Shown piece by piece: positions 50,521-51,275 of a DNA stretch of 51,761 nt (positions are counted from its first letter, which is position 1; each line of letters opens with the position of its first letter). Position numbers and translations under genes: made by a program. The stretch lies in contig JAPOPM010000143.1 in NCBI GenBank assembly GCA_026712905.1, positions 1-51,761 on the forward strand, in the 5' to 3' direction. The notes beneath the pieces were generated by a model that was not told the DNA's origin, did no database searches, and saw nothing but the letters and a program-made list of their open reading frames with translations. This DNA comes from Deltaproteobacteria bacterium. Lineage in GTDB: Bacteria; Desulfobacterota; Binatia; UBA9968; JAJDTQ01.

Positions 50521-51096
50521 CTACCCCAGCGGTATGTCCACGCCGTTGAGGGTCAGCTCCGGCACCACCTCCACCGGGCGCCGCAGGGTGTTGGTGGCGT
50601 AGCAGGAACGTTCCAGCGCCTCGGTGAACTCGACGATACGCTCCTGGCTGTCCGGGCTTTGCAGATCGAGACGGTACACGAGCCGGGTGCACGCCGACGG
50701 CACGTCCGACAGCCCGAACTTGCCCTTCTGGTCGAACTCGCCGCGCACCGACATCTCGGCGCGCTCGATGCGGATGTCCATGAATGACGCCAACTGCGTC
50801 ACCTGGCTGAGCATTCAGAACCCGATGGACGCGATAAAGTACTGGAGCGGGGCCGCACCCTTGCCGGTGCCGCCGCGCGATTCCGGCTCGTCGCACAGGA
50901 TGGTGTAACCTTCCGATGTCCTGGCTTCCTTCAGGTGGTCGTTGACCAGGCGGATGCGCGCCTCGTGCACCGTGACCGCCTTGGCCGGATCCTCCCGGTA
51001 GAGTTTCTGGCGGCGCTCGAAGAGGGCCTTGTGGTGGCTGTAGTCGATAGAGCAGCAGCCGGGATCGTCGAGTTCGCGTTCTTCGTCGATGGCCAT
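50521..51096 (-). CDS. OsmC-like protein with in-frame TGA: candidate selenoprotein
   Basis: Two abutting frames, 51096-50818 and 50814-50521, are in the same phase and separated only by TGA at 50817-50815. Read through, they give 191 residues of an OsmC/Ohr-like thiol peroxidase fold. The TGA is codon 94, in the context LQYFIASIGF-U-MLSQVTQL. This is where the family has its peroxidatic cysteine, on the long helix after the (L)LAAxGxC motif. The second conserved cysteine is Cys165 in ERSCYATNTL. The ATG at 51096 has a perfect GGAGG; the ATG directly after the TGA has no ribosome-binding site. A SECIS-like hairpin follows. The alternative is a nonsense mutation or a sequencing error. The N-terminus has about 40 extra residues with a Cys14-Cys15 pair. 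Confidence 0.8.
50785..50817 (-). promoter_or_regulatory. Candidate bacterial SECIS element
   Basis: After the TGA (50817-50815), the minus strand reads 19 nt to an apical loop AGTTG (50795-50791). The loop is closed by the perfect 6-bp stem TGACGC (50801-50796) and GCGTCA (50790-50785); two G-T pairs can extend it. A guanine among the first two loop bases, a following U and a spacing of 16-37 nt are the features expected in bacterial selenocysteine insertion elements. Confidence 0.65.
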
Positions 51097-51275
51097 GTAT
51101 CCTCCGTTTCCGTTGTGTCGGCCTCCGTTTCTTCGCCCGAAAGCATGCGCGTGTCAAGCAGGGGAAGGGGCCGGGCCCGAGTCTCCTAAACAACAGACGG
51201 GATTTTGATTAGACTTGAATGTGGCGCGAGGGACGGAACGCGCGCCGTCCGAAATTCCCGAGTAACAGGTGACCT

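What the first reader, a model, noticed from the sequence alone, without database searches (positions are those of the whole stretch)
50521..51096. Candidate selenocysteine-containing OsmC-like protein
Two adjacent minus-strand frames are in phase and separated only by TGA at 50817-50815. The read-through product is a full-length OsmC-like protein, and the TGA falls at the position of the peroxidatic cysteine; the resolving-type Cys165 remains. Only the upstream frame has a ribosome-binding site (GGAGG). Codons on both sides of the TGA look equally conserved, unlike a decayed gene. OsmC-like selenoproteins have, to my knowledge, been reported from environmental sequence surveys, so the family precedent exists, but a conventional annotation would split this into two hypothetical genes.
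Basis: partly seen in the sequence, partly recalled or inferred. Interest (0 to 1): 0.88.

Follow-up and report, generated by a model that had tools for sequence, protein, structure and literature searches.

The report
Selenocysteine OsmC-like protein, known family
A bacterial gene that looks cut in two by a stop signal is one intact gene for a small redox protein that very probably uses selenium at its active site; it belongs to an already catalogued family of selenium-containing OsmC-like proteins.

Summary
On the minus strand, 51096-50521, two in-phase frames are separated only by TGA (50817-50815); read through, they give a 191-residue OsmC-domain protein. The TGA sits where relatives have the reactive cysteine. 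Among 66 aligned homologues the position holds 53 TGA and 13 Cys, and the second cysteine (C165) is present in all 66. The same-genus orthologues (8 of 8, counting the window) keep the TGA, with purifying selection on both sides. A bacterial SECIS-type hairpin (loop AGUUG, 19 nt after the UGA) is conserved with compensatory changes in Sec rows and absent from Cys rows. The genome carries selA, selB, a Sec-containing selD and tRNA-Sec(UCA). It is not new in kind. NCBI already has a curated model for it (NF041052, 'OsmC-related (seleno)protein'), matched at E = 1e-39, and Sec-containing OsmC-like proteins were described from the Sargasso Sea in 2005. Small differences are UxxS in place of the reported UxxT and a clade-specific N-terminal extension with a Cys-Cys pair. 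Biochemical function (peroxide or other thiol redox) is untested.

The parts
50521..51096 (-). Sec-containing OsmC-like gene, 191 residues read through, TAG stop
   Evidence: NF041052 E=1e-39, residues 45-185; Pfam OsmC E=5e-14; purifying selection on both sides of the TGA
50815..50817 (-). in-frame TGA read as selenocysteine, residue 94
   Evidence: 53 TGA / 13 Cys at the aligned column of 66 homologues; 8/8 same-genus orthologues
50778..50806 (-). SECIS-type hairpin, loop AGUUG at 50795-50791, loop begins 19 nt after the UGA
   Evidence: fold -13.0 kcal/mol; 93% of cells paired in 42 distinct Sec sequences against 37% in 13 Cys sequences; coordinates checked
50602..50604 (-). second conserved cysteine, Cys165
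   Evidence: Cys in 66 of 66 aligned homologues
51101..51105 (-). GGAGG ribosome-binding site of the gene
   Evidence: read from sequence; kept in the same-genus orthologues
51052..51057 (-). Cys14-Cys15 codons in the N-terminal extension, kept in the window's own clade
   Evidence: alignment A1

Best explanation
The locus is one intact gene of the OsmC-related selenoprotein family (NF041052). Ribosomes starting at 51096 reach UGA at 50817, where SelB, recruited by the hairpin just downstream, delivers Sec-tRNA(UCA) instead of letting release factor 2 act, giving a 191-residue protein. By homology with OsmC/Ohr proteins, Sec94 in the central helix is the nucleophile and Cys165 the resolving residue of a dimeric thiol-type redox enzyme, probably a reductase of hydroperoxides or a related electrophile. 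Shown here by sequence: gene unity, TGA conservation, Cys equivalence, SECIS-type hairpin, machinery in the genome. Inferred: Sec incorporation itself and the catalytic role.
For: Family match across the TGA. Sec machinery: selA 578 bits, selB 381 bits, selD 370 bits with its own in-frame TGA, adjacent on contig C102; tRNA-Sec 73 bits, over Rfam's cut-off, anticodon TCA by ARAGORN. Residue 94 is TGA in 53 and Cys in 13 of 66 homologues, Cys165 in 66 of 66. Tree: three Sec/Cys changes against a mean of 12.1 for shuffled labels, and the window's 10-row clade is all Sec. dN/dS below 0.3 on both sides in all seven comparisons, and the downstream half is the more conserved. The hairpin meets the published bSECIS limits given in PMC13188914: loop 5 nt, G in the second loop position, 19 nt from UGA, -13 kcal/mol. 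In Sec rows stem pairs change on both sides between clades (C-G/G-C, T-A/G-C, T-G/A-T); sliding the hairpin drops pairing from 93% to at most 56%. Synonymous variation is reduced in codons +1 to +13 (2 of 11 against 74 of 132, Fisher p = 0.016). In the AlphaFold model (pLDDT 79) Sec94 lies in helix 83-105 and Cys165 between two helices; the best PDB matches are OsmC/Ohr structures.
Against: The window hairpin is not unusually stable against its own shuffles (z -0.3 to -1.5). No peptide or 75Se data exist. The structural superpositions are loose (TM by query 0.37-0.56), so the active-site geometry is not established. Leu84, directly after the invariant Pro83, stands where, from my own knowledge of Ohr, a catalytic Glu would be expected, so organic-hydroperoxide activity may not carry over.
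Confidence: 0.96

Rival explanations
1. Pseudogene, or a sequencing or assembly error that put a stop codon in place of a Cys codon.
For: A single stop codon interrupts an otherwise complete domain.
Against: The TGA is present in all eight same-genus genomes and in related families; codons after the TGA remain under purifying selection (dN/dS about 0.05-0.19).
Confidence: 0.01
2. Two separate genes: the first ends at TGA and the second starts at the adjoining ATG by translational coupling (TGAATG).
For: An ATG directly follows the TGA and is kept in the same-genus orthologues.
Against: In the sister sequences L073 and L071 and in most of the family that codon is CTN (Leu) while the TGA stays. 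One domain spans the junction, and Cys homologues are single uninterrupted proteins.
Confidence: 0.01
3. TGA is reassigned in this genome to Trp or another amino acid rather than Sec.
For: In-frame TGA in a conserved gene.
Against: The aligned residue is only Cys or Sec, and complete Sec machinery is present. selA and selB read without any internal stop; selD has one TGA near its start, in the context AAGUAAKL.
Confidence: 0.01

Closest known systems
NCBIfam NF041052, OsmC-related (seleno)protein (OsmC_like_Se)
   Same: Match over the curated cut-off (135.7 against 95 bits) spanning the Sec position; the other 23 aligned relatives match too.
   Different: The window's clade has an N-terminal extension of about 44 residues beyond the model, with a conserved Cys-Cys pair, and lies apart from the higher-scoring main Sec group of the order.
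OsmC-like selenoprotein of the Sargasso Sea survey (Zhang et al. 2005, PMC1088965)
   Same: OsmC-like protein with Sec where homologues have Cys, and a bSECIS with a loop G.
   Different: Reported motif UxxT; here U-M-L-S, i.e. UxxS. Three sequences were reported there.
Ohr / OsmC hydroperoxide reductases (for example PDB 1n2f, 1qwi, 6ebg)
   Same: OsmC domain, two conserved redox positions, fold match.
   Different: Sec in place of the nucleophilic Cys; low identity (11-23% in Foldseek); the Ohr equivalog model is not reached (17.8 against 240 bits).

Membership tests
OsmC-related (seleno)protein, NF041052 | score over NCBI's curated cut-off | tested here: met
   135.7 bits against 95
OsmC-related (seleno)protein, NF041052 | Sec (TGA) or Cys at the active-site position | tested here: met
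   TGA at 50817-50815; 53 TGA / 13 Cys in homologues
Bacterial selenoprotein gene | bSECIS element 16-37 nt after the UGA with a G in the first two loop positions | tested here: met
   loop AGUUG at 19 nt, -13 kcal/mol; limits from PMC13188914
Bacterial selenoprotein gene | selA, selB, selC and selD in the same genome | tested here: met
Bacterial selenoprotein gene | Sec actually incorporated in the protein | not testable with these tools
   needs 75Se labelling or mass spectrometry
Ohr organic hydroperoxide reductase | score over the Ohr equivalog cut-off | tested here: not met
   17.8 bits against 240 for NF052637
Ohr organic hydroperoxide reductase | hydroperoxide reductase activity | not testable with these tools
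   no assay

The most novel reading that the evidence does not exclude
The window's clade (UxxS, N-terminal Cys14-Cys15, conserved Cys68) is a functionally distinct OsmC-like selenoenzyme in which the extra cysteines take part in Sec recycling or in a substrate chemistry different from Ohr/OsmC.
Probability: 0.15. Interest if true: 0.4.

Novelty: new member of a known kind. Interest (0 to 1): 0.27.

Why it matters
It shows that an apparently split gene is very probably a working selenoprotein gene. It also shows that this little-studied uncultured lineage (same-genus MAGs are labelled Candidatus Binatia or Deltaproteobacteria) has Sec-type genes for both of its detectable OsmC-domain proteins. 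Because I know of no characterised member of the family, these genes and their close Cys counterparts are a usable pair for testing what Sec adds to OsmC chemistry. The family and its Sec content are already documented, so the gain is incremental.

Tried and rejected
Rfam tRNA-Sec also gave weak sub-cut-off hits elsewhere in the genome; they were not counted. A search of viral contigs found no relatives; a plasmid search gave only distant OsmC proteins under 60% identity. A literature search for selenoproteins in Binatota found nothing in the library. Shuffle z-scores for the single window hairpin were not informative, so the comparative pairing test was used instead. Pseudogene, two-gene and code-reassignment readings were considered and rejected.

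Full report
Observation. The minus strand carries frame 51096-50815 (93 codons, GGAGG upstream of ATG) followed in phase by frame 50814-50521 (97 codons), joined by one TGA at 50817-50815. This juxtaposition alone is not rare here: the GC-rich window holds 43 pairs of open segments of at least 90 codons joined by one TGA. The read-through protein matches Pfam OsmC (E = 5e-14, residues 76-177) and NCBIfam NF041052 'OsmC-related (seleno)protein' (E = 1e-39, residues 45-185, 135.7 against a cut-off of 95 bits), both spanning the TGA.

Homologues. NF041052 was searched in 97 related genomes; nearly all strong hits carry exactly one internal TGA. Of 66 aligned homologues, 53 have TGA and 13 have Cys at the column of residue 94, nothing else, and all 66 have Cys at position 165. 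The window gene has orthologues in seven other same-genus genomes, all with TGA, and two further Sec relatives group with them (99/98 support); the tree needs three Sec/Cys changes, fewer than any of 500 shuffles. Outside the order, G130 has a close Sec homologue and G120 a distant Cys homologue.

Selection. In comparisons with seven orthologues, dN is 0.03-0.17 before the TGA and 0.01-0.04 after it, with dS 0.15-0.74; the values before the TGA are somewhat inflated for four orthologues by a two-codon indel near the start that was not realigned. The half after the TGA is under at least as strong purifying selection as the half before it, which is not compatible with a decayed gene. The ATG after the TGA is Leu (CTN) in the sister sequences and in most of the family, so a separate second gene is not supported.

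SECIS. Nucleotides 9-37 after the TGA (50806-50778) fold into a hairpin of -13.0 kcal/mol with loop AGUUG starting 19 nt after the UGA. This fits the bacterial SECIS limits listed in PMC13188914: loop 3-9 nt, stem 4-16 bp, G in the first two loop positions, 16-37 nt spacing, at most -7.5 kcal/mol. In register across 42 distinct Sec sequences, 93% of pair cells are standard pairs, with both-side changes between clades (C-G/G-C, T-A/G-C, T-G/A-T). The same positions pair in 37% of cells in 13 Cys sequences, which is their background level, and sliding the hairpin by any offset in Sec sequences gives at most 56%. Synonymous variation is reduced in the 13 codons after the TGA (2 of 11 against 74 of 132, p = 0.016). 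The single window hairpin does not stand out against its own shuffles, so the comparative result carries the argument.

Machinery. The genome (98.9% complete, 280 contigs) has selA, selB and selD side by side on contig C102, and the selD frame itself has an in-frame TGA near its start. tRNA-Sec on C263 scores 73 bits, over Rfam's cut-off, and ARAGORN calls it tRNA-Sec with anticodon TCA.

Context and function. Gene order around the locus (UbiD-like decarboxylase, the OsmC gene, a polysaccharide-deacetylase-like gene, DUF72-like, threonine-synthase-like, PrpF-like) is kept in L081 and L082, with these neighbours on the strand opposite to the OsmC gene (neighbour names are from my own reading of the sequences, not from a family search). 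The only two OsmC-domain genes found in the genome are both Sec-type. An AlphaFold model from 24 relatives (pLDDT 79, pTM 0.72) puts Sec94 in the long helix 83-105 and Cys165 between helices 151-164 and 166-171; Foldseek's best PDB matches are OsmC and Ohr structures, and a profile of the family aligns the Sec column with the conserved Cys of solved OsmC proteins such as 3cje. Thiol-type redox catalysis with Sec94 attacking and Cys165 resolving is the likeliest mechanism, by homology. The substrate is open: the protein does not reach the Ohr equivalog model.

Comparison with the known. OsmC-like selenoproteins with UxxT were reported in the Sargasso Sea survey (PMC1088965) and are listed in a 2026 review (PMC13188914). 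NCBI has a curated family for them. The window gene is a further member, with Ser in place of Thr (UxxS) and a clade-specific N-terminal extension with a Cys-Cys pair.

Noticed in passing
L029 / L084 (G000:C73:45441-45863): A second OsmC-related Sec gene in the same genome (motif ULLT); together with the window gene it makes up all OsmC-domain genes found in this genome.
   Followed up: partly
L086 (G000:C102), minus strand: selA-selB-selD cluster; the selD reading frame has an in-frame TGA near its start (MAMEPIRLTQEVKAAGUAAKLG), so SelD is itself probably a selenoprotein.
   Followed up: partly
L081:3490-4188 (-): In the same-genus genome G004 an additional conventional Cys-type OsmC-like frame lies just upstream of and divergent from the Sec gene; the window's genome has no such third OsmC gene.
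   Followed up: no
G023:C189:2585-3007, G011:C90:17163-17585, G033:C302:3405-3698: Some homologues show one TGA and one TAG inside the domain; these may be decaying copies, assembly errors or something else.
   Followed up: no
window 50890-50895 (-), codons 68-69: Cys68-Asp69 is nearly invariant in the family (Asp69 invariant, Cys68 at least 90%); the role of this extra cysteine is unknown.
   Followed up: no
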